A stretch of DNA of 64,000 bases. Source: Trissonchulus latispiculum (taxonomy: Eukaryota; Nematoda; Enoplea; Enoplida; Ironidae). The position numbers were made by a program, and so were the translations under genes. Of this stretch, positions 1,773-20,700 are shown piece by piece (position 1 is the stretch's first letter; every line of letters starts with the position of its first letter). The notes beneath the pieces are model-generated. The model saw only the letters and a program-made list of their open reading frames with translations, ran no database searches and was not told where the DNA came from. The DNA lies in assembly GCA_030248195.1 (NCBI GenBank), contig JASAND010020912.1, positions 58,774-122,773 of the forward strand, written 5' to 3'.

Positions 1773-3935
1773 ATCACGAGGCTGTATTGTTTGTTGCTCC
1801 AAGGACATCTGTTTCATTCAGCTATCCATGTGGAGGCGTACACCTACTGAGGTGAGGCGGCTGAAGAGACTTTTCTTGTTTCAATTGTGACGTAATAAGC
1901 ATATGGTGACATCGTGAAGATTGTGATATGAAAATAACTTGGTTCTTTCGTTGAACTGAAACGGCTGAGAATGTTAATTTTTTGTTGTTGCCTTGCCTGC
2001 CTTAGACTTTAGCTCTCTCCTCGCCTCTGCCAACGACTTCAACAATTTTTATCCACTGATCGGTAAGTCACACAGGCGACCTAAAACCGCAACAAAAACC
2101 TGAAAAACTGAATAAGAGCAGGGCCAGTAATGCAAAGAAAGGAAATGTTCACAAAAGTTTGAGCCAGAACCCACAATTAAGCCGTAGATAATAGGCAACC
2201 CTTCCCTCTCAAGACACTCCACAAAACAATAGATCATTGATTCCAGAGTATCAGACCAGAGGAGGCCTTCAAGACGAAGTGAAAATCCCCGTCATGCCCT
2301 TGCAAACATGTCATTAGAGACCACCTACACCTCAAAGGAGGTCCTACAATCCTAGACAACGAACAAGAAATACTAACTCAGACAAGCATCCCCACCTCTA
2401 AGTGACAGCATGCAACGGACACACAGCAATAGCAGTCTCTAACCAGTGCTTACATAGCTACAAGCCATCAGTCGTATTGCTGTGGTAAGCCTAATAAACC
2501 TGCAAGCAATGAGGCATTTGAGATAGATCACTACTACCAGCATAGCTACCTCATTTCCACACTCCACACACAAATTTAGGGGTTTTGGCAATTTATGGGG
2601 CAATTTATGGGGGCTTCGCCCGAATTTTTTAGTTAAAATGTTCAATTTTTCGGGAAAATCGGGCAAAATTCTGAATTTTTCTTCAACAATTAAGCATTTT
2701 TTGCAAATTTTTATAAAAAATTGCAAATTTTAACAAAATTAGCGTTAATTTTTCGAAAAATTTTACAAATTTATTGTTAAGGTACAAGCCCTCCTCAGAA
2801 AATTTTTGTTGAAGGTACAAGCCCCCCTCCCAAATTTTTTGGAGGCAAGCCCACCCCAGAACCCGACCCTATGTTAATGTATGTTTCTGACCATTAATTA
2901 TACACGCAATGAAACTGATTCTAAAACAAAAGTTGTGAAAATGGAAGCATACATTCTTTGCTGCCTCAGGTGGTTGTCTTATACTGGAAGGATAATGATG
3001 TGTCCTGTTCCTGCATATTTTTATTACGGAGCTACCTGGAACTTTGGGCTTCCACACACCATTTTATGTGAGTCTATCAAACACTTTTGAGCGCACAATT
3101 GTAGTTCCATTCCAGAGCACCTGAGCTGATACTAATCACAAAAGGTTCAACGAAAATGAGTTTACTTGGTTGTACCTGCTATCCAATTTTTTATATTTTC
3201 ACCAAAACTTTCTGATTGAACTAGAAACTAGATAATTGGAATATTTACGAGGTGATCATGCATAAAATTATGGAAAATGTTTCAATTATTTGGAGTTTGT
3301 TGACTAGTTCTAAGCCGATTATATTCCCACGGATGGTTAGCTGATCTGGTTAGGAAACACGCCATAGCTTATGATATAGAGCTTTCCGAAATTTATCTCA
3401 CCTGTTTTCAAAGTTCAAGCATCGTACGGTATAATGTCGCTATAATGGTGCACACTTTTGTTATGAGGGAAATTAAATCGTACCAGAAGTCAGAAGGAAA
3501 AATGTGGTGTGTGTAATTGATTAGCCTGAAAGCCGCCCTGTTAAAGTTTTGCTGTAGAAGAGAACACGCATCTTCAGTTGAAAAGATAACTCGCATCAAA
3601 TAGTAGCCCATATTTTATTATGAAACCAGTGGAAGAATGAAGAGACGCAACAGTTGCTTTAATATATATTTGTTTTTAAAGTCTATGATAACGATAATTG
3701 TAGCAAAGCTGCAAAGCATTATTGACAGTAGCAAATCCTGAAAAGTTTCGATCATCCACTTTAACTACACAATACCTCCCGTAGCGCAGTGGTTTCTTAC
3801 TGCAAATTTCAAATATCCCTCTTGGGCAATTTACCGAGATTGTCAAGGGGTGGCCGCCTGTCTGGTGGAGCTACCACAGCACCTCCATTACGGTGGCAAT
3901 TATTCAGTGTCAGCATCCGCTTCCCTCAAAAATGC
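1773..3935. other. Intergenic, no gene seen
   Basis: No convincing exon. At 2590-2870 there is an A/T-run low-complexity patch in which AAGGTACAAGCCC occurs twice (near 2779 and 2813). Around 3778-3840 there is a weak tRNA-like remnant, with an A-box-like TAGCGCAGTGGTT and an ACTGCAAAT anticodon-loop-like piece, but no foldable acceptor stem. Confidence 0.45.
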
Positions 3936-3939
3936 ATAC
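3936..3939. repeat. Target-site duplication, left copy (ATAC)
   Basis: The four bases directly before the left LTR are ATAC, and the same four bases directly follow the right LTR (17791-17794). A 4-bp duplication is usual for Ty3/gypsy-type integrases. Chance identity of 4 bp is about 1 in 256. Confidence 0.65.
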
Positions 3940-4828
3940 TGTCACAAAGGTAAAACAAACAAATGACATGCATACATTTACAAAGTCAAAATAAATCTAG
4001 CTAAGTAAAGCGTAAGTAAATTAAATTATTAGGTAAATAATGCCTACGTACTGCTGCGTACTACAGCTCTGTGTACTTAGTTTACTGTGTGCTGTGCTGT
4101 TGTTCCGGCTGTTGTTGTTTTGCACAGCCGTTTGCGTCGAAGGTTGCCTTGCTACTGAGGCTGCAGTCGCTACCGTAAGACTGCAAGGCTTAAAGGGGAT
4201 TGGCCAAGAGGGAAAGCACGAGAGTGCTACAATTCGATGGAAATTTGCAGTTTAGGCTGGGTTTCCCTGAGTTCTGAGAATTGCTACTTCGGTGACGTTT
4301 TGACGGATAGAAACCCAAAGTTTGCAGCATTTTGTACCAACTTTTATGTCAAGAAAGTAGCCTAAAAACATGAAAAATTGGGCAAAAGTTGGAAAGAAAG
4401 CCCAAAAGCTATTCTAAAGAACTTTGCTTTGGAGGAGAAAAGACGAAAGCGGAACAAAAACAAAAGCAACTGCGCTACCGTGTGTGCTACAGTAGACCTA
4501 GAAAGGCGGTACCAATGTATGTTACTTAAACTGTGGTTGTCTTTGAATTGTTGCCTTTGCCTTTGTCTTCTGACTTGCTATGCTGTGGCGTTGGACCGTC
4601 TCTAACTGTGTTTAAAATAAACTATAAGTTCGGCCTTACTTCTGACCAGGCTTGCCTACAGACGGACTTGCTAGAGCAAGGTGTCGGGTGCAGACCCAGC
4701 CTAAGAACAACAACAGCTAACTCTCAGGACGATCCACAACAGTAGCGGGTGTCAGGTGAAAACCTAGCCCACAGCTTCCACTGCCAACAGAACTCTCTCA
4801 ATTGTAACACACCTCCAGACCTGCTACA
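3940..4828 (+). repeat. 5' LTR
   Basis: 889 bp, TGTCAC...GCTACA. It is nearly identical to 16905-17790. A polyadenylation-type AATAAA lies at 4616-4621. Short open frames inside (for example at 4040 and 4378) recur in both LTRs and look non-coding. It probably supplies promoter and 3'-end signals for the element. Confidence 0.85.
4616..4621 (+). terminator. LTR polyadenylation signal AATAAA
   Basis: AATAAA in the 5' LTR, conserved at 17578-17583 in the 3' LTR, a typical place for the R-region 3'-end signal of an LTR element. Confidence 0.5.
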
Positions 4829-4830
4829 TT

Positions 4831-4842
4831 TGGTAGCAGAGC
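4831..4842 (+). other. Primer binding site (initiator tRNA-Met type)
   Basis: TGGTAGCAGAGC begins two bases after the LTR. It is complementary to the CCA-tailed 3' end of animal initiator tRNA-Met at 11 of 12 positions (known tRNA ends in ...CTCTGCTACCA). It would prime minus-strand cDNA synthesis, and it fixes the + orientation of the element. Confidence 0.75.
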
Positions 4843-5103
4843 AGAGCGGGGAGGCTAACTAAAGCTTAAAAAATGAGAAGAAATAAAACATATTAGCCGT
4901 TAGAGTACTTAGTTTATAGAATCCTCCCATCTCCCTTCTAATCAGAGTGTTCCCTACCCTCTCACCCTCCTTTCACCCCCATTTCCCTTCCCTTCCAAGT
5001 TCCCCTGGTATATATATAGTAAATAAAAATTTATAGGAAAAATATTAGCCTGGCATATTTATGTTTTAGTATAATTTATTTATATATACCTTTCTGAGAA
5101 ATT
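4843..5103 (+). other. Element leader, untranslated
   Basis: Between the primer binding site and the first ATG. It holds a pyrimidine-rich tract (about 4920-5010) and AT-rich sequence. No open frame. Confidence 0.5.
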
Positions 5104-7170
5104 ATGGAATCTGACATGCTAAGACTGGTCCCAGGACAACCATACCCGACTAGATTCAAATATGAACTGTTTGGCTTCAAAAATAGAACTTCCAAAACAG
5201 CAAAAGTGGTACCGCCGCTAGGACATCCAGCCTGGGCCTCAGCAATATCTAGACTGTCGCGGCGATCAGCAAAAGCGCCAATTCTGATCTGGACGCTGTC
5301 ACAGCATCAGCGCCATTTCCGCCATGTCCTGGATAAGGCGATCAATAAAGGCTGGTGCGCCATCGACACCGAAGGCCTAGATGCAGCTGTGACTCTTCAT
5401 GGTTCTAACCATCTGAACCTGCTCCAGCTCGCCTTCTCGACCAAGGACGAGGATACCTAAGTTTACTGCATTGGGTACCTCACCGGCTTCATTCCAGCTA
5501 AGTTCCCTGAGGACTTGAAGGTGTTGCTTCAGAAGCCTCCCTGTGCTTTCATAGCAAACGGAACGCCTTGCGATGCCCAAAGGTTTCAGGATACCTTCCA
5601 GTTCACTTTCACATTCAGAGTGGACCTGACGACTCTCTTCAAGAAGGCCGGGTTTGCAGCAAAACACTCCATCGACCGAAAGCCAAATGAGGGAATCAAA
5701 CTGACCCTCATGAGCGAGGCGTTGCTCGGAGTACCGGATCCAAAAGACCAGGACATTCAAAAGTGTGGCATTGATCTGCTGCCTACAGACGAGCAACTGG
5801 CATATGCCATCGAAGATGTTCATCATCACCTGCGGATTGCTGAAATCTGCCTGGAGCGTCTAAGTAAGGACAAGTCACCAGCAGAACTAGATATGATACT
5901 AACTAGACATGAAGAGAGGAAATCGCAAACGACCCTGCCTATTGGGTCTCAGGCCAGAAAGGATCGTAGACGCCGAAAACGTCGAACATGGGAAGACAGC
6001 TACGAGGAAGATGACCGTGACTATCAGCAGGATGAGCTGATTTCTGTCAAACGGATGCCGTCAGATTTCACTCCTTTCCATCAATCAAAGAAGTCCAAGC
6101 GTGAAATTTTGAATCAGCCTTCTACCTCGCGAGTTCAACCGTTGCTAAAGCCTGTAGGACCCGTTAGGGAACGCCGAGTTCCTGTCGTCCCAGCACGAAC
6201 GTATTTGGCGAAAAACCAGCTATTGCCGTTGGTTATCAAGTCCTATGCTGCCCTGGCTTTGCAACAAACGACGCTGTTTCGAGACTTTCACGAATATCTC
6301 ATAGCACGGAGACCCAAGCGCGGTAAAGAATCGCTTGAACAGGTGATCGAATTTTTCATCGGCCGCCACGGATCTTCCGTCATTGCCCATCTGGAAACGC
6401 AGAAACTCGAAGAAAACTCCTGTCGGTGGGAAGCTACCTTGTCGCTTGGCCAAATACCTGTCTCGGCTTTGGAACGAACTGAGGAGGCCGCTATCCGAGC
6501 AGTGGTGCAAAAATACCAGCGAATAGCCAACCCGAACTTGGGTCCTCGGATTCCTTTGCAGCCACCTCGGCGGCGAGGACGGAATGCTAGACAACAGTGG
6601 CTAAATTTGATCCACGCTGGAGATCGACGGTACACACCTATCCTGGGGTGTCCAGAGAAGTCCTCGACAGCCCCTCGACTGGAAATTCCTGCTCAGCATG
6701 AGAGTCGAGAACCTGGCCTAGTGCGGTTTGGAGGTTACCAGAGTCCTCTGAGTAACTTCCACAAAGCAAGATTTGTGATTAACTGGAAAAGTTACACTCA
6801 TGTAGAGCAATACTATCAGAACAGAAAGGCCAGCTACCTTGGAAATGATAGTTTGGCTAACCAGATTCTCAAGGCGGATGGTCCAGCCCGTCAGAAGGGA
6901 TTAGGAAGTATGGTCCAGTATGACGAGGTCGTCTGGCATCGCGTTGCCAAATACTTCATGTATGAAGCGCTCTACGCGAAATTTACTCAGAATCCAGCAC
7001 TGGGGCGCTATCTGCTCGAGACAGGAGATGCCTACCTAGCCGAAACCAGGAAAGATGATCCTTTTTGGGGAACCGGCTCGGACATCACTGATGAAGTCGT
7101 CGGCACCGGAAAGAACTGGTTGGGCAAACTGCTGATGGCCCTGCGCTCGCATCTGCGAGGTGACCTCTAA
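5104..7170 (+). CDS. DEDDy 3'-5' exonuclease-NADAR fusion, one in-frame stop
   Basis: One frame of 688 codons runs from ATG 5104 to TAA 7168-7170, with a single internal TAA at 5458-5460 (codon 119). Codons 84-250 read as an RNase D/WRN-type exonuclease: CAIDTEG supplies motif I (Asp88, Glu90), CDAQRF motif II (Asp157) and LAYAIED motif III (Tyr234, Asp238), preceded by LTLMSEALLGV as in that family. A basic, NLS-like RKDRRRRKRR lies near 286-295. Codons about 375-475 (around CRWEATLSLGQIPVSA) resemble a degenerate double-stranded RNA-binding fold, which is weak. Codons 540-685 are a full NADAR domain (FGGYQSPLSNF, HVEQYYQ, YAKFTQN, DDPFWGTG, KNWLGKLLMALR). NADAR proteins hydrolyse ADP-ribosyl-guanine or riboflavin intermediates. 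The exonuclease fold continues uninterrupted across the internal stop, so it is either a recent nonsense mutation or readthrough. The gene is intronless and on the LTR strand. Nuclear nucleic-acid processing is an inference. Confidence 0.8.
5458..5460 (+). other. In-frame TAA inside exonuclease domain
   Basis: TAA in context ACC-TAA-GTT-TAC sits between two halves of the same exonuclease domain in an otherwise open frame. Without readthrough the product is 118 residues, with only catalytic motif I. An independent start downstream would drop motif I and leave the NADAR domain intact. Confidence 0.85.
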
Positions 7171-7176
7171 GGTACG
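7171..7176 (+). promoter_or_regulatory. Candidate 5' splice site after exonuclease-NADAR stop
   Basis: AAG|GTACGT directly follows the TAA stop codon and is a good donor consensus. A pyrimidine-poor acceptor (CTGCTTTAG) ends at 7263, just before the next reading frame. A spliced RNA leading into the second ORF is possible; not proven. Confidence 0.3.
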
Positions 7177-7201
7177 TAGGCAAGGTAGTGAAGTTTAAGT
7201 A

Positions 7202-7207
7202 AATAAA
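7202..7207 (+). terminator. Possible polyadenylation signal after exonuclease-NADAR
   Basis: AATAAA about 32 bases after the stop codon. If used, it would end the first transcript inside the element. Confidence 0.35.
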
Positions 7208-7263
7208 ATTGAAGAGGTATATACATCAAAATTTTTAATAACAAAAGATTACATCTGCTTTAG

Positions 7264-8023
7264 GTATTTGTTACCAGCGACCCCGTTCTACTCGTCGGAA
7301 CTACGTAGTCGTCGTCACTACAACCCTTATGGTCAGTGGCAAGTGATGCGACGACCCAGGAGAAGTTTGCCAGTGCAAGGTTACCCGGAAGAATTTCCTG
7401 AACTGATTGCTCCTAGACGTCGAGCTCATAGTGGAAGCCGTCGACATAGTGTCGACAGCCGGGATTCTCTAGAAACAGCTCCACCTGAAGCCCCACCACC
7501 TCTGTATTGTGACTATTATAGTTCAATTGATATTCGGGATAAAATTCTTTATATTCCCTGGGTTTACGGTCTTGACCCAACTCAAGAACCAAAAAAGAGT
7601 CCGAAATTTCTTTCTACTCCAAATTTGCATGCTACCCTGCAAAGCTGTCATGCAGGCACAATAACTGTACTTTTTGAAAACCCTGAAGTTTTCACACGAG
7701 ATGAGTCTAATTCATGTTACTCTTCAGATTTTCCTAGTCTCGACTCACTACCTTCGTTATCCCCGGTCCCCGAATATTTGCAAAACGGTCATATAGAATG
7801 GGATGATACGGAAGCATTCTATGCGTTGCTAGATGCTGAACTAGCTCTATCTTCGGAAACATCCAGTAATAGTTTACCTGAACTGGCAGATGATAACACC
7901 AGTTCCACTAGTAGCAGTACCGAACCTACTCGTAATCCTATGATAGTTAGATATACCGCTGCATCACAGTGGTCTTTACCAGGTTTTTTCTTAAAGAAAC
8001 AGTATAGTAAATTCAAACCATGA
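7264..8023 (+). CDS. Ser/Pro-rich ORF upstream of the pseudokinase
   Basis: The frame is open from the candidate acceptor at 7263 to TGA at 8021-8023, about 252 codons. The first ATG is internal (7346, MRRPRRSLPVQGYPEEF), so an upstream exon is likely if a longer product is made. Visible features are an Arg/Ser-rich segment (RRRAHSGSRRHSVDSRDS), a central block (YIPWVYGLDPTQEPKKSP...KFLSTPNL), and an acidic Ser-rich C-terminal part (SLPELADDNTSSTSSSTEP). No catalytic domain is recognised. It lies about 150 bases before the pseudokinase frame on the same strand. It may encode the unstructured N-terminal region that Tribbles proteins carry, joined by an intron I cannot place, or be a separate protein. 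Composition and length suggest real coding sequence. Confidence 0.5.
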
Positions 8024-8171
8024 GTGATGTATAACCGTCATGCTTGCAGTATGACCTGTATAAAATCATTGTTTTAGAATTGAAATGGAAGAGTAGTTTT
8101 TAAAAGATAGTTTTGAAATTTGTAGCCGAATAGAACTTTAGAGCAATATTTATATACTTTATAAATTTTAG

Positions 8172-9196
8172 GAATCCTTTGCTTGGACTAAGTTTTGGGT
8201 CCTCGTCTGAAATGAATTATGGCACGTGTTTTTACGCTCAGATTGAACTCATACATGACAGCTCACTACTAAGCGGTATACCACAGACTCATTTCTGTAC
8301 AATCGAATGCTGGTCATCTTGATTCATCTGACACTAATTTGAAATTATTAGCACACCCCACTTTTTGGTATAACAACGATGGAGAATTTTGTTCGACTTT
8401 TGAAAGCTTACGATCAGCAAAGACAATGAAAATTGTTCGGACCCCCACTTTGTACGATGAAAGTTTAATTCATGGTAAAATGTCTGAGAAAAGTGCCAGA
8501 GAGCGTTTCCGACAAATTGTTGAAATGGTGGCGGTTGCTCATGTGCATGGTGTGGCTTTCGTAGACATCTGCTTATCAAAATTTTTAGTGTACGCGGGAA
8601 CAACCTCAGAAGTTGTTAAGGTCAGAAATTTTCTGTATTACTATCTGTTTTCGCCCTCAGACTATGATTGGGTTAGCAGTGATAGAGTACTACCGATCAA
8701 TTCATTTTATAAAGCTCCTGAAACGTTCAAACAGAATTTTTATCAGCTGACGAAAAGCGACATTTGGAGTTTAGGAATTTTATTGTTTGCCATGCTCACT
8801 GGCAGATACCCTTTTCAAGGTTCAGAAATAGAAGAACTGACACATCACGTTTGTAGAGGATTTTATACATATACTCAAACTGATTCAGTTTCTCCAATGG
8901 CTCGAGAATTGATCGGACGAATGCTATCACTGCGTCCAGAAAATCGCCCTCTGACTAGCGAACTTTTAAAACATCCGTGGGTTGATACAAGAAGATACCC
9001 TCAGTTAAATTTTTCTGCAGCAAACATGACTCCCCCAAATGTTTCTCAAACTTGGTGTGACAATTTGATCTGGGCATACATCGGCCCATCGCAAGCTAGT
9101 AAAATGTTTTCTGAAGCCGCTGCTCAAACGGAAATGCAGTTAGAAATCAGTGCTCACATACGAAAGCGTTTGAAAATTGCCTCTCAAGTTCCATAG
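8172..9196 (+). CDS. Tribbles-like pseudokinase
   Basis: The main frame runs to TAG 9194-9196 and is open back to 8273. A partly overlapping frame (8172-8319, after acceptor TTTTAG) reads like a kinase N-lobe (LLGLSFGSSSEMNYGTCFYA). A one-base frameshift or tiny intron between about 8273 and 8350 would join them. The C-lobe is clear: ARERFRQIVEMVAVAHVHG, then FVDICLSKFLV where active kinases have HRDLKxxN (the Asp stays, Lys and Asn are lost). No DFG is present (VRNFLYY instead). Then come KAPE, SDIWSLGILLFAMLTGRYPFQ and LLKHPWV. This matches Tribbles, whose catalytic loop is LRDLKLRKF and whose C-lobe ends in a LLHPWF-like motif. The product ends IASQVP, loosely like the C-terminal COP1-binding QxVP of Tribbles. 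Tribbles are scaffolds recruiting COP1 ligase and MEK. Here it is probably catalytically dead. It sits inside the LTR element on its coding strand. Confidence 0.7.
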
Positions 9197-10246
9197 AATT
9201 TTACAGTATATCTGATGGTTTGGAAAGAAAGTTTTTGTCAATTTTGAAAATGCATACCTGGTGAAAACCTCTGGATGCAGGGATATTTGCCGATACCAAA
9301 TAAGCTATGCCAGGTTAGCACCTAGGGTAGCGTGTTGGGTAAAGAATATCCTTACTAGGGCAACTATGCCAGCAACCATCTCGGCAAGTTGACTCTATGA
9401 AAAATTCAAAACATCAGAATCAGATATACTGTCTGCCGTATTTGTTGTATGGTTTTATGCTTTGTAAATAGCAATCATTTATATATTTGGAACATTCAGT
9501 CAGTCATATATTTGTCAGTAATACGTAGAAGCACTGTCAATGCATGCATACATTGTATTTGTCAATAATTTTGTCATTGAACTCACGCATCATGTCAGTC
9601 TGTGTATACATACGAACAGTTGTTATAACGTTAACCTCTAGTTTCTTCATGCACTCAACTTAACTGCTCGCAGTCAGACTGTAGTTATAGATGTATACAT
9701 GCTTATTTATATATATAGATTTTCAGCCGGAAACGTAGGAAAAGTTGTCAAAATATAGAATTCCAGAAAAAGTGGAATGTTTGTTTTGTAAGTAGAAAAC
9801 GTAGATGAGACCAATCAAGTAGATTTTCGAACTTCAAATTATGATTTCTGAACTTTAAATCATTGAAAATTAACTTTTAGAAAGGGAAGAAATTTGGAAA
9901 AGTGGAAGCAGTAGGTTCGGCAATCGGTGTGAGCTTTCACAGTTTTTCCACAACTTGATAGGCTGTCACATTCAGAATATCGTGTAATCCAGGGAATAAC
10001 CGACCTCGACGGCGCTCCGAGGAGCCTTGGCGACGCAGAATCTGACCGACTGACTTGGCAAGCCGCAGACCGGTTTCTCAGTACGTCTTACATACAGCAC
10101 ATAGGATTGTTTGAGTGATTCGAGTGACTGCCACAAATAAATTGCAGGTTACTGATCAGCTCACCCCGAGCGTAGCTACTAGCCTCCGCTCACTTTGTTT
10201 TTAAAATTTCTCGCGATAGGTGATGAATCAAATGAGTATAATCCAC
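9197..10246. other. Non-coding interior of LTR element
   Basis: No reverse-transcriptase-like or other reading frame on either strand. AT-rich, with scattered short direct repeats such as GCATACAT near 9540-9610. Confidence 0.5.
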
Positions 10247-10369
10247 CTAAGAGTAGATGATTGGCCTTTTCTTGCCACGGCTGTTAAATTTTGGGTCGCG
10301 ACGTTTCGCCCATCTTTACCTATGGGCGTCTTCAGGCTGGTAGCCCTTAAGAGGGCTGTTGGGATCAGA

Positions 10370-10441
10370 GGTGGTCCGGGATTTGATCCGTGACCGTACG
10401 CGCCACTCCTGTGTAACATTACCACTATACTACCCAGGGGA
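10370..10441 (-). ncRNA. tRNA-like SINE head, left arm
   Basis: Same sequence as 10786-10857 in reverse orientation. It contains internal pol III promoter-like boxes. The acceptor stem does not close cleanly, so it is tRNA-derived rather than a functional tRNA. Confidence 0.45.
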
Positions 10442-10785
10442 CAATTTTACTTACTTGGAACTTATACTTATTGTATTCAAATGACCACGGACCAAACTGG
10501 GCAGAAGTTAAGGTGCTGGCTAAGGAAAGAAACCTAAGAAAGAGAGAAATTAAGGAGACGATAGAAATGAAAAAGGGGGAACACGAGCTTATAGTCAACC
10601 AAGCATTGATATAAGTGACATCTGGCTATCAGAACTTGGACTCTAACGTAGGCGGCAACATCAAAGGAAAGTCTAATACACAGCCTTAGTGTACACACAA
10701 TACAAGTACATTGTAACAGTGTACACACTAGTGCAATTGAAACTGGGGGAATACAATAAGTATAAGTTCCAAGTAAGTAAAATTG

Positions 10786-10857
10786 TCCCCTGGGTAGTAT
10801 AGTGGTAATGTTACACAGGAGTGGCGCGTACGGTCACGGATCAAATCCCGGACCACC
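10786..10857 (+). ncRNA. tRNA-like SINE head, right arm
   Basis: Starts TCCCCTGGGTAGTATAGTGG, with a D-arm/A-box typical of tRNA-Asp/Gly/Glu. A T-arm/B-box GGATCAAATCCC follows about 40 bases on. The intervening anticodon arm is not canonical. Likely the pol III promoter of a SINE. Confidence 0.45.
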
Positions 10858-10891
10858 TCTGATCCCAACAGCCCTCTTAAGGGCTACCAGC

Positions 10892-10927
10892 CTGAAGACG
10901 CCCATAGGTAAAGATGGGCGAAACGTC
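10892..10927 (+). other. CTGAAGA-stem-GAAAC hairpin in SINE body
   Basis: CTGAAGA is followed by the 7-bp stem CGCCCAT/ATGGGCG with an 8-base loop, then AAACGTC. The arrangement recalls a hammerhead ribozyme core (CUGANGA - stem II - GAAA - GUC), but it is one base off register, and helix III is absent or minimal. A mirror copy lies at 10300-10335 on the other strand. Confidence 0.3.
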
Positions 10928-10980
10928 GCGACCCAAAACTTAACAGCCGTGGCAAGAAAAGGCCAATCATCTACTCTTAG

Positions 10981-11847
10981 TCTAGTAATGTGTTTCTTTG
11001 TTTCAATCCACTTCCGTCTAGTCACACATTTAATGGGCTTAGTCTTTAAAACTGCTCTCCTATCCTTGCTTGAGCGAACATAATCGCGTCCGATTCTTCT
11101 TCCGTATCTACAGATATGCATATTTACTACAAAGGTTCTCCTTGTGCAAAATCTTCGCAAATATATTTTCCAAAATTCTAGCATTTTCCACAACCTTTCA
11201 CTTTATTGCATTGAAAAAGTAGGGCAAAGGTCAAACTGGTTTCAAGTAACAGTTAACAATTTGCACATTTGTAAGAATTTCAGTTTTCGCAAATGTCGAG
11301 AGCAGTGTCTACGTTTAGACTACTTAAAGTCCGTATAGTCTCATTAATTTTCACCATGTTCACACCTGTGGCCATACTTTCACAAAACGTTACCAATTGG
11401 CTTCAAATTTTGATTGGTCACTTTTCCCCAAAAATTTTCAATTTTGGATTTGGGAACGTTTTGGGAGTAGCCACAGCTGCGCGGTGCTTCAATATTTTTT
11501 ATTTATTTTAGGTGGTTATCCTATATTAATTTTTATGTATTAATGTATTTTGATGGATCTCAATTTGGCTGATTTCCTGGCGGAGCTGGGCCTCCCAACG
11601 GATCTGCTTAAAGAAACAGGTAACCAAATATTAATAGTAATTTATTGTTACTCAGGAATTGGCTGAAGTGTATTAATAGGGCTGGCTGCAGTAGAGAAAT
11701 TTGTAGACGAGCTGTAGCAAGAATTCATACAGCTTAAGCTCCGTATTTAATATCCTGTTATCAGTTAGCAGGCATGTGAGTTGAAAATAAGCAAATTAAA
11801 TTAATTGGGTCACAAAGGTTTAAAACATGGGATTCCCTATAGGGCCT
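10981..11847. other. Non-coding interior of LTR element
   Basis: Nothing recognised. Short frames near 11144-11511 show no domain. Confidence 0.45.
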
Positions 11848-12960
11848 ATAGAAAAATAGGGCCTGGATTTTTCGGAGATTTTTCATTTTGCAGTAGGTTT
11901 GTCTAAATTTTCTGCTAATATGCGGCCTGTACTCAACGCTGAATCGCAGTTTTACAATTCAAATTCAATTTTTTACTTTTAAAATTGCCATTTTCGCCGT
12001 TCATTGTTTGAACTTAGAGGAAATCTAAGAAATTGGCCTTTGATTTTTCGAAGAGTTTTAATCTTGCACTAGGTTTGCCTAAATTTTCTACTACTGTGTG
12101 GCCAATACTCAACGCTGCACCGCATTTTCCAATTTAAATTCAATTTTTTACTTTTAAAATTGCCATTTTCGCAGTTCGCTGTTCGAAAGTGGAGGAAAGT
12201 TGAAAAATAGGGCCTGGATTTTTCGGAGATTTTTCATTTTGCAGTAGGTTTGTCTAAATTTTCTGCTATTATGCGGCCTATACTCAACGCTAAATCGCAG
12301 TTTTCCGATTTAAATTCAATTTTTTACTTTTAAAATTGCCATTTCGCCTTCCTTTGATGGAACGTGGAGGAAACTTGAAAAGTTGGAATTTGATTTTTCG
12401 GAGCGCTTTCATTTTGCATTTAAGGTTTGCATAAATTTTCTGAAAATATGCGGCCTATACTCAACGCTAAACTGCAGTTTTCCAATTTAAATTCAATTTT
12501 TTACTTTTAAAATTGCCATTTTCGCAGTTCACTGTTCGAACGTGGAGGAAAGTTGAAAAATGGGCAGGAATTTTCGGAGAGTTGTCATCTTGCAGTAGGT
12601 TTGTCTAACCTTTCTGCTAATATGCGGCCTATACTCAACGCTGAATCGCAATTTTACAATTTAAATTCAAATCTTTACTTTAAAATTTCTATTTTCGCCG
12701 TTCGTTATTTGAACTCAGAGGAAATCTTAAGAAACTGGCCTTTGATTTTTCGAAGAGTTTGAATCCTGCACTAGGTTTGCTTAAATTTTCTGCTAATGTG
12801 CGGCCAATACTCAATGCTAAATCGTAGTTTTCCAATTTAAATTCAATTTTTTACCTTAAAATTGCCATTTTCGCCGTTCGTTGTTAGAACTTGAGGAAAC
12901 TTGAAAAATTGTCCTTTGATTTTTCGGAGAGTTTTCATTTTGCATTAGGTTTGCCTAATG
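11848..12960. repeat. ~175-bp tandem satellite, about six copies
   Basis: The phrase AGGTTTGTCTAAATTTTCTG (or close variants) recurs at about 11896, 12071, 12246, 12424, 12597 and 12773, with a truncated AGGTTTGCCTAATG at 12947, spacings 173-178 bp. Each unit also contains ACTCAACGCT, TTTAAATTCAATTTTTTAC and ATTGCCATTTTCGC. Variants such as TAGGGCCTGGATTTTTCGG recur about every 350 bp, hinting at a dimeric higher-order unit. No coding potential. It lies inside the LTR element. Confidence 0.85.
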
Positions 12961-15900
12961 TCTATGTCTATTTATTCGTTTTGCTTTAGCAACTATTTCT
13001 AGCTGGGTACTTTACACTGTTTTAGCGTCCTTACAAGATGCGCTCACGTCTTGTGGCTCAGTATTCACCGGCCAAATTGAAGAATTTCGAAAGCAGATTG
13101 GGCCCTCTTGACTTTGGCCAGCGCAGGAAGCCTTCAATGGAGTCGTTGTGATTTGCCAAATTCGCCATTTGATTTGCCAAGTTTTGCTATGTATATATAT
13201 GCCTTATATTGTTTGTTATATGCGGTGGCTTGTATTTAGTACTGTTTTATACTGATTTTTGTTTACTTTTACTAGGTTTGATGTCGTTATAAAATCACTC
13301 TTGAAAATTTTAGAAGCAAATGTCTGGTTTTATTTCTCATCGGTAGAATAGATTGTTCGTCTTTCTTTGAGATGCATTAATATGTCTATTTTACTTTGAA
13401 GCATAATACTTCTTTACTATACTTGTGCAGGTGTTTGTTACATCATGTTCGTTTGTGCTTGTACAAATGTTTGTTGCACTACAACGCGTTGCGTCGTAAC
13501 ATGATGATTGTATTGATCAAATGTATAGAGTTTAGTCGTTGTGCGTAGTGTTTATATCTAATGATTTTATTCAATGTTTTATCTGCGGTCTAAATTGGCA
13601 TTTTTAGGCTAATGCACTGCTTTTTCTTCTGTTTGCTTTTTTATGTAAATGTTTTCGCTCAAAAAATTTCCCGTCAAAATTTAACTTTTACCGTTGCTGA
13701 AAAAAATAGGATTTTTTCCATGCTATTTCCATTTGATCCCTATAGATTCTTGCTATTTTATTTCGCACGTAGTCTTAAGCTAATACTTAATCTATTTGTA
13801 TTAGCTATGTATTTTAAAAATCTGTTAGCGGTTAGCTTTGAATACTGATGTACATATGTAATTATATTAAAAGGCAATGTTCTATTTCCCAGAAGCTCAG
13901 CCCACACCAGTAATTTATATTAAAGGAAGCTGGTGTGGGAGAGCTTCAACTCAACAGCAGGGTTGCGCGAGGCCGAGATTTCACCCAGACCAAGAACGAG
14001 ACTGAGCCCAGGGTATCGAAACAGAGACCGAGCCCACCGAAACCGAGACTGGACAATTCTCGGCTTTTGGGCGAGATCGAGACCGAGACTCTCCAGCTTG
14101 CGTCAACAGTACTTCATACTTTTTTGGAAGTCCTAATTTTTGAGGAAAGAATTATGGCGAGCGTCCGCCTCCCTCTTCGGGTTCTAGGCAGTATTAACTT
14201 TTGTAACTGCAGGCCGCAGGCTCTTGGCTGGATTAATATTTATAATGTTAATAAATGGGAAAGACCCAAGAGAACCCAAGATATTAAGACATAAAAAACT
14301 TAGGTCATGGCTTCAATAGTTGATTCTAGATACTTGACCTTTGGCTTCAATAGTTGATCCTAGATACTTGACCTTTGCCGGTTTTGTATTGTGTTGCCTG
14401 GGCTGTCTTGCGTATTCCAGCTAGGAAAATTGTTAAGGAAAGGAAAAGTTAAAATAATTCTTAAGGAAGCTAGTTTCATCCTCATGTGGACTTAAGTATT
14501 GTAGGTAGGTATTGTGTGTTCTTCCGCGTGTTCCAGGAAGGAAACTTAAGTATATCCAGCGAATACTGCAAACTTGCCTTGCAAGTAGTTTGAACCGAAT
14601 TAATCTACCTAATAGAATTTGGAATTGCAAAGTATTGTACATTGCGAGGGATGTACCAAAACGGTACAAAGACGGTACGTTTTGTGAACAGAGTACACAT
14701 TGTAAAGAGTTCAAACTTGAATACAAAGTTTGAATGGACGTCTTTTATATGCACACATGTAGTAGGCGTAAATGGTGTTTATTTGTTTTGACAGCAGTCT
14801 TCAACAGAAATGGTTTCACACATTTAATAAACAAACGACAAGGGTTTCATATTAATTGTTGTATTCAAACTGGAAATCTTCGCATTTTCACTAGATACCA
14901 CAAACAACGCTTTCCACAGTTTAAGCAGAAAGGTCGCCTAAACAAACGAAGGTCAAGTTAAGATTGGAAATTTAACTATGAAATTCCTTTGGAAATTTAA
15001 CTATGAAATTTCTTCGCAAATATTCCTTAAAATTTGCGCATTTGGCACTGCAAAATGCGCAAAGAAAGGAGGAACTTTGCGAAGATAACACACGTAAACT
15101 GCGAAGATGGCAGTGTACATTGCGCAAAAATTTATGCGCAAACAGAAAAATCTTCGCATTTGTTGTACACTTCGTGCCACTTTTAATTTGACTAAGCCAT
15201 TACTTAGTCACAACATCAACTAATTTTCTTGCAATTTATAAACATTCTAAACATATAGTTGTTCATTCATTCATACGCCTTCAAGATCAAAGTACACCCA
15301 ATGGATAAAATATCGTCAAACGTACCTGTTCTTCTGCCCTCACAAGAATATCAATAAGTGAAAAATAAAATTAACGGGTGCACGAAATTCGCGTCAGTAT
15401 TTCTCCAAAAATTTGAATGGTCACGGCGGTGACTATATATAGGTATATATGTCAAATATGTAACGGCAGATTCAATATAATCGAAACTTCTAAAATCATT
15501 AACCTTTATTCGTAATTTATCTTATATATGCAAACGAGAGAATATGTTCCACTCGCTTCACAATTGCTAAATTATTAGTAAAACTATCATCACACACATC
15601 AGTAAAACATGGGTGTACTCGCTTACAAGGGAGTTTCGAAAAAATTCTTTGGTATCTGATGTGCAAAAACACTAGTCGTCACATATATATAAATAGCGAG
15701 GCCACTCACAACATCTATCTAGTTAACACCAACATACACTTTTGTCGTTGGGCTTGTTGGCCACGGAAACTGGCCAGTCAGGCTCTCTTCCTTTCTTCCT
15801 TGGGCCCGACTTGTTTCTACTTACTATTTTTGACCCACAACTGGTTGCACTTTTCGCACAGGAGGGCTTCCGTAGAAAAAGGGGAACAGAGTAGTTATGA

Positions 15901-16540
15901 TCTGGTAGACCTTTACTAGTAAAAGGCACATTGTCATGAAATTTGTAATAATTTTCATAAATCCTATTGCAGATATCAGTAATTTTTTCTTTCAGTTCTC
16001 CCCCCCCCCCTTCTTGCTTGACTTGTTTGACTAGAATTTGCGAAATTAGGCTGCAATTTGTCGTAATATTAATTGCGCTTGCGCCTGCTCGAATCGCAGA
16101 AAGATCATTTATATTGTTTGCCGAAGTAGAAGCAAATGGAAAGGGGCGATTTCTCTTTTTCTCTTCTTGGTCTCAGAAGTCTCTGGAGTACTGCAGTTTA
16201 AATTCTCCATTCACCCCTTAGGAATATACTACACTTACATTTAGTACACATGTATAGAATCATCGCAATAGGATTGCATATGCATATAGTTATCTCAAAC
16301 GTATGTCTGCAAATGTATGCCAAACGCCTATATATATATGCCTATACACATACGCACGTGAACACTCGCACTAACACGCAGCTTCTACCATAAGACTATC
16401 CAGTGTAGTAGATATACATATATGCATAAGTTGTAGGTATAGAAAGATATATGTAATAATAACGCACGTAGTAATGAAAGGCATGTAATAATAATGTAAT
16501 GATAAAATAATATAAGCAGGATTCGCAGTAAAGAATTAAA
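12961..16540. other. Non-coding interior of LTR element with small repeats
   Basis: No gene recognised. Visible structures are an inverted repeat at 13892-13910 / 13930-13947 (CCCACACCAG / CTGGTGTGGG) and a direct tandem pair, period about 35 bp, at 14309-14377 (CTTCAATAGTTGAT..CTAGATACTTGACC). There is also a 24-bp direct repeat (TGGAAATTTAACTATGAAAT) near 14964-15010. Confidence 0.5.
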
Positions 16541-16546
16541 GATTCC

Positions 16547-16617
16547 GTGGTATAGTGGTAATTCTTTTGAACTCTTACCCGTTCAACCACGGTACGATTC
16601 CCGGTAGCCCTGTAATT
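16547..16617 (+). ncRNA. Degenerate tRNA-Glu/Gln-like sequence
   Basis: TTCCGTGGTATAGTGGTAAT matches a tRNA 5' half with A-box, and TACGATTCCCGGTA matches a T-arm/B-box. The 5' and 3' acceptor strands do not pair and the anticodon stem is poor, so it is a tRNA pseudogene or SINE head. Confidence 0.4.
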
Positions 16618-16870
16618 TTCGTACAAAATTTCTGCATAAGTTAACCAAGAACTTTACCAGAAACTAAAAGGTAACTCGGAAAAACGCCGTTTTTAACAGC
16701 GACTGTTCGTATCTTGTACTGTTCGTAGTTAGAAAATGCATAGCTGCTGTGATTTGTTTTGTGAATTTTATGCGTAACCGTAATGCAGTATATAATTGTA
16801 GAAATTTTGCTGGTTTAGAAATAATTTGTGGGGGCCAAAGTGTACAGCTTTTCTAATTTTGCAAATTTCG

Positions 16871-16904
16871 AAAGGGGGCTTTCGACTTTTCGGGTGGTGA
16901 GTGA
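16871..16904 (+). other. Candidate polypurine tract region
   Basis: AAAGGGGG at 16871-16878 and GGGTGGTGAGTGA directly before the 3' LTR are the only purine-rich runs where the plus-strand primer should be. Neither is ideal. Confidence 0.3.
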
Positions 16905-17790
16905 TGTCACAAAGGTAAAACAAACAAATGACATGCATACATTTACAAAGTCAAAATAAATCTAGCTAAGTAAAGCGTAAGTAAATTAAATTATTAGGTA
17001 AATAATGCCTACGTACTGCTGCGTACTGCAGCTCTGTGTACTTTACTGTGTGCTGTGCTGTTGTTCCGGCTGTTGTTGTTTTGCACAGCCGTTTGCGTCG
17101 ACGGTTGCCTTGCTACTGAGGCTGCAGTCGCTACCGTAAGACTGAAAGGCTTAAAGGGGATTGGCCAAGCGGGAAAGCACGAGAGTGCTACAATTCGATG
17201 GAAATTTGCAGTTTAGGCTGGGTTTCCCTGAGTTCTGAGAATTGCTACTTCGGTGACGTTTTGACGGATAGAAACCCAAAAGTTTGCAGCTTTTTGTACC
17301 AACTTTTATGTCAAGAAAGTAGCCTAAAAACATGAAAAATTGGGCAAAAGTTGGAAAGAAAGCCCAAAAGCTATGCTAAAGAACTTTGCTTTGGAGGAGA
17401 AAAGACGAAAGCGGAACAAAAACAAAAGCAACTGCGCTTCCGTGTGTGCTACAGTAGACCTAGAAAGGCGGTACCAGTGTATGTTACTTAAACTGTGGTT
17501 GTCTTTGAATTGTTGCCTTTGCCTTTGTCTTCTGACTTGCTATGCTGTGGCGTTGGACCGTCTCTAACTGTGTTTAAAATAAACTATAAGTTCGGCCTTA
17601 CTTCTGACCAGGCTTGCCTACAGACGGACTTGCTAGAGCCAGGTGTCGGGTGCAAACCCAGCCTAAGAACAACAACAGCTAACTCTCAGGACGATCCACA
17701 ACAGTAGCGGGTGTCAGGTGAAAACCTAGCCCACAGCTTCCACTGCCAACAGAACTCTCTCAGTTGTAACACGCCTCCAGACCTGCTACA
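16905..17790 (+). repeat. 3' LTR
   Basis: 886 bp copy of 3940-4828 in the same orientation, TG...CA ended, with the conserved AATAAA at 17578-17583. It differs from the 5' LTR by about a dozen substitutions and a few short indels, including one of 4 bases near 17040. Confidence 0.85.
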
Positions 17791-17794
17791 ATAC
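17791..17794. repeat. Target-site duplication, right copy (ATAC)
   Basis: Matches 3936-3939 directly before the left LTR. Confidence 0.65.
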
Positions 17795-20700
17795 GTTCTA
17801 GCTGGCACTACCCCTAACCGAAGCACCGACTGGGGTGAGGTGGCTGTTAAAAAACTACACAATGAAATTCTATCTTGAAGCAAAATTACGAGGATTGTTG
17901 CTATGTGATTGTTCTGTAATAGAGTTTGTGAATAACAGCATTTCTTCATATAGTTCTGCAAGCTCACGGTTGGCTGAAGTTGAACTATTATACTACTATT
18001 ATTGTTAATTTTGTCTTTGTCACACATATCACAGTAGCAGCTAATTTGGCTGTGTTCTCAGTAATTGAGATCCTTGGTTTCAGAAAAAGCACAGTAAGCT
18101 TAAGGTATTTTCATGGGAAGCTCAAACGAAGTAATGATAACCAGAATCTGATTTTTCTACAACTAATCTATGCAAATGTATTCAACGTTCGTTGACTGCA
18201 ATTTCGATACAAACAAATTATGTAAAGGTTTAGGTTCGCTTAATGTAATACAGTGTATTTCTTTGAGCACGTTCAGTTTCTGTATAAAAACAACACAATT
18301 TATACCTGCATCTGCGTTTACATATGGTATCCCCCATTACCCGACATTTATTTTCTGTGTTGCACGAATATTTTCAATAAGTTGACGATCCCAGTCTTAG
18401 AATTCACTGAATGAGCATTTTGTTCAGTGGTAGGAGTTTCCAGCAAGTGTGGTTCATATGTAAAATATTTTGATTCTTATCCGGCCGGACAATTTGTTCT
18501 AGTATATTTCTAGGCAACTATAGTACAACCAAAAATGTGTGTACAAACTTCGACCGTTTATAGCAGAATTGTTAAAATTCTTCAAGCATAATGAGTTTCT
18601 TTTATAGAAAAGTATGCACTCAGCGGGATTGCAACTATTTAAGAAATATCAATTTCACCCGTAAACTTGATCATCTAATTGTTTACGTAACGTGTGTGCG
18701 CCATACGAATGTGTGCGATATAGTAATTGTTATTTTATTGATATGTACGTACGTTAAGTGTAAAGTGTATCTAGCTGTTTAAAGAGTACTTACTTATTTA
18801 TGTAGGTAAGTACAATCTCAGTCAAAAGAGTTGTTTATTGGTCTTTGAATCTGGTTTCAATTCCTTGATAGGTTGCATTATGCACTAAAGTGATTTTCCA
18901 ACGATGGTCTTTCTATAGTAGTGACGTGGATCGGATCGTCACATTCGATTTGATCGATAGGCGCGCTGAATCGGTTCGGATTGGATCGCTTGACTCAGAT
19001 CGGTGATCCGACTTAATTTCAAATACATACCAAATAAGCCAAGCTTGCTGATCTGTTTTGTGTTAATATCAGATTTAGCATTTAATCAACAACTTTCGAA
19101 TACTTGCATATTAGGTTTCTCTTTCTCATAACAAACATTTCTAAACTTTTAACTACATTCAAACATTTCTAACTTAATTCTATATAACATAAGTTTTATA
19201 CAGTACATCTGGTATCGAATTGAGAAAGCAGGGCCTGTTTTGTATTATGCTTCTGAGCATTAACGAAAAATGAATTAATATGTGAATTAACTGACAAGCC
19301 TATTTCTGAATAAATGTTACTGCTGTTGCCAGAATTTCAGAGATCAGCTCACTCGCTATACTAAGTATTCTACGTCTTCTTTTGCTTAACTCAAATAATA
19401 GCTTGATAATATTTTGTTTAATATGTTTAATTTAATATGTTTAATTTGTGTTTCGTAATAATAAATTGAGGAATTTCTAATAAATGAGCGTTTCATAACA
19501 AATTCCCACACTTGGTATTTTATCTGATACGTTTTTGTGACAATGGTGTCAAATGTTTGTTCTAAGCAAGCTTTGTTCCTGCTGCGCCGAGGCGCACCAG
19601 GTCCACTATAATCGGTTTCGCAATAACGTTTACACACAAGTACTGCGTTTTATGGGGTTTTCATAAAACGCACATGTTCTGTAGTTCACGCAATCTGTAG
19701 AGACAAAATTTATGCAAATTAGCTCTTCCAAATAAAGCGAGCAAAGAAACAACATTTCTTTGGATTTCTGTTGTCATAAATTGAAGTATATAGTCAAAAG
19801 ACTTAAGTTCACAACATCAACTTTACTTTCACTTTACCTTTACAAGTATATATTGCTGGCGAATTAATGTTGTTATTGCTATTCAGTATTGTTGCAGTCT
19901 CTTAAAACCGAATGGCACTTAAAGCTTAAGGCATGAATTGAGTCTAGTAAGCAATTCTCTAGCATGAAAATGTTTTCTAAACTGGCGGCATACATGTACA
20001 GTTGACTGTTCACATTTGCATTTCGATTTCGGCAATAGTTTTTCCAATTTTGCTGAACGTCCGTATTCAGTAGTGCTTGACTCGTTTTTAGTTGTTTACT
20101 GCCTTATTAGTTCGTGACCTGAGTCCAGACACGCACTCGACCTAGAAAAAGTTTGCAGGTTAGGATCTAAGAGATTGTGGTAGAATTCGAATGTTCAATG
20201 CCTCATAAAAATTACAATATAAAATGGACAAAGTCTGCATCTCGCAGCAAGTCTATTAGTTTAACACGGTTAGTGTCAACAACAGTCTACATTTTGCTCT
20301 TTCTTGACTTTGCAAAAAAACATCTGCAGTTTCCTTTGTACAACCTCTTTTATACGTACTATACTATATGTACATGTACAAAAGTTAAGACATGTTGCTG
20401 ACGAGCATAAACGTATTGTCTGCATATGGTGTTCTTGGATTCTACTCGAAAACAGCGAGGCTTCTATAGATAGCAATGATGAAAGCATCCACTACAGATT
20501 ACATCCATTTACAGGGTTGTCAGATACAGTCATACAAGTTAGGTGCGTTCACCCGCTAACCACTCTGAAAGGACTGCTACTACAGTAGGACCAAAATGTG
20601 GGTACAAACTTTGACCGCTTATAGCAGGTTGGAATTTGGAGCGATCCCCAGCAATGTATACATTTTTAGAATCGCTTGGAACTCGAGAAAATACGGAATT

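What the first reader, a model, noticed from the sequence alone, without database searches (positions are those of the whole stretch)
3940..17790. A 13.85-kb LTR retrotransposon with host-like cargo genes and no gag-pol
Seen: exact TG...CA repeats, a tRNA-iMet primer binding site after the left one, ATAC on both outer flanks, and ~98-99% LTR identity by eye. The interior encodes an exonuclease-NADAR fusion, a Ser-rich ORF and a Tribbles-like pseudokinase, all on the LTR strand. Known: non-autonomous large LTR derivatives exist, but cargo of this kind is unusual. Inference: the element captured cellular (or viral) regulators that could influence host RNA surveillance or signalling, and is moved by proteins in trans.
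Basis: partly seen in the sequence, partly recalled or inferred. Interest (0 to 1): 0.88.

Follow-up and report, generated by a model that had tools for sequence, protein, structure and literature searches.

The report
Deleted provirus carrying Tribbles–NADAR cassette
This stretch of an unnamed, probably animal, genome is a damaged copy of a large virus-like jumping element whose fuller relatives in the same genome carry, next to virus-type genes, a conserved set of extra genes (a predicted nuclease fused to an ADP-ribose-handling domain, and two kinase-like regulators) that likely act on host defence or signalling.

Summary
In detail: LTRs at 3940-4828 and 16905-17790 (872 of 884 aligned bases identical), an ATAC duplication, the start of a tRNA-iMet primer site, three cargo ORFs. 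The reading changes. This is not an element that captured host genes in place of gag-pol. It is a one-off deletion copy (its junction occurs once in the 733.8-Mb assembly) of a large Ty3/gypsy lineage. Relatives in the same genome carry LTR, PBS, leader, gag–pol (env-like region scanned in C17531), Tribbles-type pseudokinase 1, DEDDy-exonuclease–NADAR, Ser-rich ORF, pseudokinase 2. Exo–NADAR follows 37 of 47 pol places at ≥65% identity, 0 of 15 below. It has 35 stop-free copies outside the window covering nearly the whole 551-aa query; ω is 0.06–0.20 in the 16 of 28 pairs computable. One copy preserves a leader spliced to the Ser-rich ORF. In the window the exonuclease frame and the start of pseudokinase 2 are broken. 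A second Gypsy lineage fuses PWWP and a Tribbles pseudokinase to pol. Closest described kind: Burro giant Gypsy elements; NADAR is on record in Ectocarpus Gypsy and oyster LINEs. Two exo–NADAR protein searches found nothing alike beyond the NADAR part. A role in counter-defence or signalling is inferred.

The parts
3936..3939 (.). target site duplication ATAC, left
3940..4828 (+). 5' LTR, 889 bp, TGTC...CTACA
   Evidence: 79 LTR matches in the genome including these two, a lower bound
4831..4842 (+). truncated primer binding site: first 12 of the 18 nt that relatives have (tRNA-iMet)
4843..4850 (+). deletion junction: the PBS is joined to the last codons of pseudokinase 1; 10,084 bp present in C17531 are missing here
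   Evidence: found once in the genome
5104..7170 (+). exonuclease-NADAR ORF, interrupted by TAA at 5458-5460; NADAR domain about 6742-7158
   Evidence: uninterrupted stop-to-stop frames of 686-744 aa in relatives
7262..8023 (+). splice acceptor AG (7262-7263) and Ser-rich ORF2 (from 7264)
   Evidence: a spliced retrocopy in C7726 joins the leader to this acceptor
8170..9196 (+). acceptor-like AG (8170-8171) and pseudokinase 2 (Tribbles-like); the first part is out of frame and holds a TAA
9197..16904 (+). long 3' region; stretches shared with other copies: 9400-10262, 15616-15954, 16505-16904
10247..10980 (.). insert-like unit with perfectly complementary 232-nt arms
11841..12958 (.). tandem array, 7 units of about 175 bp
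16892..16904 (+). purine-rich tract GGGTGGTGAGTGA directly before the 3' LTR, near-identical in C1162
16905..17790 (+). 3' LTR, 886 bp
17791..17794 (.). target site duplication ATAC, right

Best explanation
Window 3940-17790 is a single, internally deleted and partly broken copy of a large Ty3/gypsy-type element whose relatives in the same genome carry gag-pol (in the one copy scanned for it, with an env-like region between) plus a conserved cassette of accessory genes that likely modulate host defence and signalling. Shown: pseudokinase 1, DEDDy-exonuclease–NADAR, Ser-rich ORF2 and pseudokinase 2 follow pol in a fixed order in sublineages whose exo–NADAR proteins are as little as 38% identical (pseudokinase 1 not seen in the C18871 sublineage), and pairwise ω is well below 1 in all pairs computed but one. 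Shown for ORF2: one retrocopy joins a 5' leader carrying ATG directly to the ORF2 acceptor; an equivalent AG stands before pseudokinase 2. Inferred: the accessory proteins are made from spliced subgenomic RNAs that share this leader, as in complex retroviruses. Inferred: exo–NADAR trims or repairs nucleic acid and removes ADP-ribose from it, clearing marks set by host ADP-ribosyltransferases. Inferred: the pseudokinases act as Tribbles-like scaffolds or decoys in host signalling or protein turnover. Inferred: the window copy arose when plus-strand strong-stop DNA mis-transferred from the PBS to a short match near the end of pseudokinase 1, or by a later deletion.
For: C17531: LTR, PBS, leader, one frame at 59499-67298 (gag-type matches, each below cut-off; Monjiviricetes_fusion 29.4 bits in the separate piece, cut-off 27; protease, RT, RNase H, integrase above cut-off), then pseudokinase 1 and exo–NADAR. 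C1162: matching LTR pieces on both sides (94.5% over 749 aligned columns), full PBS, gag start, pol in a 2,598-aa frame and the four accessory ORFs within about 22.5 kb, including a nested LINE. Linkage: 37 of 47 pol places at ≥65% identity have exo–NADAR downstream on the same strand within 6 kb, 0 of 15 below 65%; 55 of 72 exo–NADAR places have pseudokinase 2 within 3 kb downstream. Copy quality: 35 of the 96 exo–NADAR matches lie outside the window, cover at least 540 of the 551 query residues and have no stop. Selection: exo–NADAR ω 0.06-0.20 in the 16 of 28 pairs with computable dS, eight of them at dS of about 1.6-2.0. Exonuclease D90, E92, D159, D240 and NADAR E571, K578 are invariant in 7 of 7 sequences aligned. 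Pseudokinase 1 hits Tribbles 1/2 at 1.3e-30 to 6.2e-29, next best 3.8e-19. Splicing: C7726. Junction and its uniqueness.
Against: No expression data and no assay. The env-like match is weak: 26.7 bits, just under the cut-off of 27, when the whole 1,766-aa piece was scanned, and its N-terminal half gave no hit; it was not scanned in other lineages, where only similar frame lengths (2,550-2,640 aa in many copies) suggest it. 10 of 47 close pol places lack a detected exo–NADAR downstream; these were not checked one by one. C18871 shows no separate pseudokinase 1 between pol and exo–NADAR, and the C1162 pseudokinase 1 match contains one TAA. Pseudokinase 2 scores best against SIK3 (1.6e-21), Tribbles 2 only 1.8e-18. 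No Tribbles-type COP1-binding motif is conserved (motif recalled). ORF2 of the window against C12823 gives ω 0.82. Only one spliced retrocopy was seen, for ORF2 alone, and a poly(A)-like run near its contig start is unexplained. The window's own exonuclease–NADAR and pseudokinase 2 frames are broken.
Confidence: 0.85

Rival explanations
1. A standing non-autonomous LTR family with captured host regulators, moved by proteins supplied in trans.
For: No gag-pol in this copy; LTRs, TSD and the start of a PBS are present. C1673 also looks like a deletion derivative with the leader joined to the 3' region.
Against: The junction occurs once in the assembly with up to 3 mismatches. The same cargo sits behind pol in relatives. 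Only 12 of 18 PBS nt remain.
Confidence: 0.08
2. Two independent LTR insertions or an assembly artefact around host genes.
For: The assembly is fragmented (21,732 contigs). Mixed subfamilies occur: window LTR 81% identical to C17531, interior 92%.
Against: Matching ATAC outside, but TTTG and GTGA inside, which two solo LTRs would not give. The same order recurs in many contigs. C1162 has LTR pieces around the whole unit.
Confidence: 0.03
3. Same element, but the exo–NADAR and pseudokinases serve the element's own replication (processing or packaging of a large genomic RNA, particle trafficking) rather than counter-defence.
For: The authors of the Ectocarpus study suggest NADAR may process retrotransposon RNA (PMC12477816, passages read). 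An xQT[ED] tail in 4 of 5 pseudokinase 2 sequences resembles a dynein light-chain motif (recalled).
Against: Pseudokinase 1 and the C263 fusion resemble Tribbles, a host regulatory family. NADARs tested in print remove ADP-ribose from guanine (PMC11125620, PMC11543638, passages read).
Confidence: 0.3
4. The window deletion happened after integration (ordinary DNA deletion) rather than during reverse transcription.
For: A unique junction with only a very short match fits both.
Against: One breakpoint lies inside the PBS, the point of strand transfer.
Confidence: 0.35

Closest known systems
Burro giant Gypsy elements of planarians (section 7 of PMC6431247 read)
   Same: Large Gypsy-type LTR elements with env, similar to mononegavirus fusion glycoproteins, in frame between gag and pol, and extra domains or ORFs that look like host regulators.
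   Different: Burro cargo is BIR, BCL2-like, MATH, ankyrin and others; here Tribbles pseudokinases and exonuclease–NADAR as separate ORFs 3' of pol. Burro exceeds 30 kb; C1162 is about 22.5 kb with a nested LINE. Pol kinship with Burro was not tested.
NADAR-bearing Gypsy elements of Ectocarpus and Tx1 LINEs of oyster (PMC12477816, passages read)
   Same: NADAR domain carried by retroelements.
   Different: [quoted passage not shown] here it is fused to a DEDDy exonuclease in a separate 3' ORF, with pseudokinases.
Complex retroviruses (general knowledge)
   Same: Accessory genes 3' of pol, apparently expressed through splicing from a 5' leader.
   Different: Ty3/gypsy-type pol; env-like region between gag and protease; unrelated accessory genes.
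Anakin and other elements with chuvirus-type env (mentioned in PMC12440569, part 1 of 5 read)
   Same: LTR element with a negative-strand-virus-type glycoprotein.
   Different: Accessory cassette; the position of env in Anakin was not compared.
Viral NADAR systems (PMC9503650, passages read)
   Same: A mobile genome carrying an ADP-ribose-processing domain, there proposed to counter host ADP-ribosylation.
   Different: Those passages name phages, NCLDVs and RNA viruses; here an LTR retroelement.

Membership tests
Ty3/gypsy LTR elements | TG...CA LTRs, 4-6 bp TSD, PBS | tested here: met
   Window: TG...CA, 4-bp TSD, partial PBS; full 18-nt PBS in C17531, C6625, C1162, C7726, C1673
Ty3/gypsy LTR elements | Pol order PR-RT-RNase H-IN | tested here: met
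   Met in relatives C17531 and C1162; absent from the window copy, which is deleted
Ty3/gypsy LTR elements | Ty3-type gag capsid | tested here: inconclusive
   PNMA E 0.00045, Retrotrans_gag E 0.0015, Ty3_capsid E 0.0034, each below its curated cut-off
Burro-like elements | Mononegavirus-type env in frame between gag and pol | tested here: met
   C17531 only: one frame 59499-67298; fusion glycoprotein 29.4 bits in the piece L029:2-1450 (cut-off 27), 26.7 in the longer piece
Burro-like elements | Over 30 kb with a giant ORF1 holding BIR/BCL2/MATH domains | tested here: not met
   C1162 about 22.5 kb; no such domain among the Pfam hits of the frames scanned
Burro-like elements | RT phylogeny with Burro | not tested
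Standing non-autonomous LTR family | Several copies sharing one internal structure | tested here: not met
   Junction found once
NADAR superfamily | Domain score and conserved Glu and Lys seven residues apart | tested here: met
   7 of 7 sequences match PF08719; E571 and K578 invariant, the spacing of E88 and K95 in PMC11543638; residue equivalence inferred from spacing
DEDDy 3'-5' exonucleases | Four acidic residues and a motif III Tyr | tested here: met
   D90, E92, D159 and D240 invariant in 7 of 7; Tyr in 6 of 7 (motifs recalled); PF01612 in 5 of 7 at E up to 0.1, best 1.1e-6, below cut-off in C12823
Tribbles pseudokinases (pseudokinase 1, and C263 fusion) | Best similarity to Tribbles, degenerate DFG | tested here: met
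   1.3e-30 against 3.8e-19 for the next protein; C263 1.7e-42 against 3.9e-20; DFG replaced
Tribbles pseudokinases (pseudokinase 1, and C263 fusion) | C-terminal COP1-binding motif | tested here: not met
   No conserved motif at the C-terminus (motif recalled)
Tribbles pseudokinases (pseudokinase 2, the window's) | Best similarity to Tribbles | tested here: inconclusive
   SIK3 1.6e-21, MARK about 1e-19, Tribbles 2 1.8e-18

The most novel reading that the evidence does not exclude
An env-bearing retrovirus-like lineage of an animal that encodes its own nuclease-coupled nucleic-acid de-ADP-ribosylase together with two captured Tribbles-type decoys, expressed from spliced RNAs: evidence that the animal host marks retroelement nucleic acid by ADP-ribosylation and fights it through Tribbles-linked signalling.
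Probability: 0.3. Interest if true: 0.92.

Novelty: new variant of a known kind. Interest (0 to 1): 0.77.

Why it matters
Accessory genes kept under selection across a diverse retroelement clade point to what that clade must overcome in its host. NADAR plus a nuclease points at nucleic-acid ADP-ribosylation; the role of NADARs in animals is called unclear in a paper whose passages were read (PMC11125620). Two pseudokinases point at Tribbles-type control. Because many stop-free copies exist in one genome, both ideas are directly testable with purified proteins.

Tried and rejected
Tried without result: a search of 5.8 billion proteins with the window exo–NADAR frame found 5 proteins, matched over 26-27% of the query (the NADAR part); pseudokinase 1 found one at E up to 1e-10, 28% identical; a seven-sequence exo–NADAR alignment found none. 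Only the candidates sharing most words were scored. IMG/VR scan: 35 pattern hits, none confirmed. Rfam: none in 3900-17800. ARAGORN: no tRNA in the window. Literature: 10 searches of the held library; no listed title or abstract opening describes a retroelement with Tribbles or with exonuclease–NADAR. The lists were cut where there were many hits, and subscription journals are mostly absent, so this is no proof of absence in print. A search for the bZIP-like ORF of C5360 did not complete, so its spread is unknown. A genome search with the env-like piece failed on wrong coordinates and was not run again. Host not identified: a COX1 contig reads with the invertebrate mitochondrial code, AAA as Lys, which argues against a flatworm; its first half is interrupted. 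No structure prediction was run: the tool's listed sources do not include genome-search loci, and single-sequence models would add little.

Considered and rejected: Troyka (CG...CG ends and 3-bp TSD; here TG...CA and 4 bp).

Counts were made from places typed by hand: 96 exo–NADAR matches merged to 72 places, 72 pol matches merged to 62, and a subset of the 138 pseudokinase 2 matches (small fragments and cross-hits to other kinases left out). All three lists are lower bounds by the tool's own statement.


Full report
Observation. Window 3940-17790 is a bona fide LTR element. The LTRs are 889 and 886 bp; an alignment that leaves out the last base of each has 872 matches in 884 aligned bases. 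ATAC stands immediately outside each. A purine-rich tract, GGGTGGTGAGTGA, stands directly before the 3' LTR and is nearly the same in a distant copy, C1162. Relatives have an 18-nt PBS, TGGTAGCAGAGCGTGGTT. It is the exact reverse complement of the 3' end (with CCA) of two tRNA-Met genes of this genome; the tRNA-iMet pattern has 44 matches with up to 3 mismatches, 21 of them exact. The window keeps the first 12 of these 18 nt.

Cargo. Frame 5104-7170 encodes a 3'-5' exonuclease region and a NADAR domain; a TAA at 5458-5460 interrupts it. ORF2 (7264-8023) has no Pfam match at E up to 1. The third ORF is a kinase fold (81.6 bits) without DFG. Its start is out of frame and holds a TAA.

Relatives in the same genome. 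The exo–NADAR query (the 551 residues after the window's TAA) has 96 matches; 35 of these, all outside the window, cover at least 540 query residues without a stop. The pseudokinase 2 search gives 138 matches and the pseudokinase 1 search 113, both including other kinases. In C17531 the LTR and PBS are followed by a leader and one long frame (59499-67298, 2,600 aa). It holds gag-type matches (each below cut-off), an env-like region (Monjiviricetes_fusion 29.4 bits in the separate piece, 26.7 in the longer piece, cut-off 27; the N-terminal half gave no hit), then protease, RT, RNase H and integrase. Pseudokinase 1 and exo–NADAR follow. In this copy exo–NADAR is broken and the contig ends inside it. 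The env-like region was not scanned in other lineages; frames of 2,550-2,640 aa in many copies suggest it is there.

Order across sublineages. Pseudokinase 1, exo–NADAR, ORF2 and pseudokinase 2 follow one another in C12823 (pseudokinase 2 cut by the contig end), C1162, C5542, C5525 and C5360. Pol lies upstream in C1162, in C5360 (with a bZIP-like ORF between), in C12823 and in C5542; C5525 is not in the pol list, and its pseudokinase 1 lies near the contig start. C18871 has pol, exo–NADAR, a third ORF and pseudokinase 2, but no separate pseudokinase 1 between pol and exo–NADAR. Among the lineages compared, and leaving out C263 (47-48%), RNase H–integrase is 75-85% identical and exo–NADAR 38-64%, so the accessory genes evolve faster than pol yet stay in place.

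Linkage count. Of 47 pol places at ≥65% identity, 37 have exo–NADAR downstream on the same strand within 6 kb. Of 15 at lower identity, none has. Of 72 exo–NADAR places, 55 have pseudokinase 2 within 3 kb downstream (places typed by hand, merges told in Tried and rejected). The 10 exceptions were not examined one by one.

One mobile unit. In C1162 a 5' LTR piece (C1162:92413-93156) matches the 3' LTR (94.5% over 749 aligned columns). The full 18-nt PBS and the gag start lie behind it, and the 3' LTR starts at 113837, after pseudokinase 2 and a 3' region that holds a nested LINE. The first part of its 5' LTR did not match, and its pseudokinase 1 match contains one TAA. So gag, pol and the cassette sit between LTRs, about 22.5 kb in all.

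Expression. C7726 carries LTR, PBS and a leader ending ATG TCC TTT CTC CG, joined exactly to the ORF2 exon at the window's acceptor TTTAG|GTATTTG. In C17531 the leader runs on into GTTGGTAAAT; C6625 is 99% identical to C17531 there. This is the footprint of a spliced RNA that was copied back. Among 8 copies examined, AG|G stands before ORF2 in 7, and an AG stands before pseudokinase 2 in 8 (positions picked by the shared protein start). That all accessory proteins use this leader is inferred.

Selection and chemistry. Exo–NADAR ω is 0.06-0.20 in the 16 of 28 pairs with computable dS, eight of them at dS of about 1.6-2.0; pseudokinase 1 0.11-0.16 (3 of 6 pairs); pseudokinase 2 0.06-0.20 (6 of 6); ORF2 0.18-0.27 in 9 of 10 pairs, and 0.82 for window against C12823. 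In seven exo–NADAR sequences the four acidic exonuclease residues and the NADAR Glu and Lys are invariant. NADARs tested in print hydrolyse guanine-linked ADP-ribose (PMC11125620 and PMC11543638, passages).

Tribbles. Pseudokinase 1 matches Tribbles 1/2 at 1.3e-30 to 6.2e-29, next best 3.8e-19. A second Gypsy lineage (C263) fuses protease–RT–RNase H–integrase, PWWP and a Tribbles pseudokinase in one frame (Tribbles 1 at 1.7e-42, next other protein 3.9e-20). Pseudokinase 2 is less certain (SIK3 1.6e-21, Tribbles 2 1.8e-18).

The window copy. Its left part joins the PBS to the last codons of pseudokinase 1, removing 10,084 bp as measured on C17531. The joint occurs once in the genome with up to 3 mismatches. 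A breakpoint inside the PBS suggests a misplaced second strand transfer during reverse transcription; a later deletion is not excluded. C1673 is another apparent deletion derivative.

Comparison. Burro elements of planarians share the large Gypsy body, a mononegavirus-type env in frame between gag and pol, and regulator-like cargo, but not this cargo (PMC6431247 section 7). NADAR in Ectocarpus Gypsy Pol and oyster Tx1 ORF1 is on record (PMC12477816 passages). Hence a new variant of a known kind. The combination exonuclease–NADAR plus Tribbles pseudokinases was not found in the protein searches or among the listed papers of the ten literature searches.

Noticed in passing
L038 (C263:6700-12000), minus strand 3-5300: A second Gypsy lineage with pol fused in frame to a PWWP domain and a strongly Tribbles-like pseudokinase. 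One search lists kinase matches in several other long frames (1,815-2,934 aa); only C263 was examined.
   Followed up: partly
L037 (C5360), minus strand 492-1067: Extra ORF between pol and pseudokinase 1 with a bZIP basic region (PF07716, E 2.2e-5), resembling C/EBP (recalled), the class of factor that cellular Tribbles proteins target (recalled).
   Followed up: partly
L021 (C7726:1-10000): Leader-to-ORF2 spliced retrocopy with LTR and PBS on one side and a poly(A)-like run near the contig start on the other; how it was made is unclear.
   Followed up: partly
window 10247-10980: Unit with 232-nt perfectly complementary arms, each holding what looks like a tRNA-derived SINE-type sequence (by eye).
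   Followed up: no
window 11553-13100: Two exon-like pieces with GT and AG borders that flank the 175-bp tandem array and could join into a short reading frame of about 50 codons (by eye).
   Followed up: no
L025 (C18007) 356-4143: Neighbouring ORFs with C2H2 finger (weak), Ulp1-type peptidase C48 and reverse transcriptase, resembling NeSL-type LINEs (recalled).
   Followed up: no
P0004-P0006: Database proteins with NADAR behind a region that looks like LINE ORF1 (by eye, recalled).
   Followed up: no
A2, pseudokinase 2 C-terminus: Conserved WCxNxxW in 5 of 5 sequences (preceded by Qx in 4 of 5) and xQT[ED] in 4 of 5.
   Followed up: no
window 849-1772: 307-aa ORF matching a 7TM chemoreceptor family (Srx, 32.5 bits, cut-off 23.8).
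   Followed up: no
LTR and interior belong to different similarity groups (LTR 81% to C17531, interior 92%; C12823 interior 95%), which suggests recombination between subfamilies.
   Followed up: no
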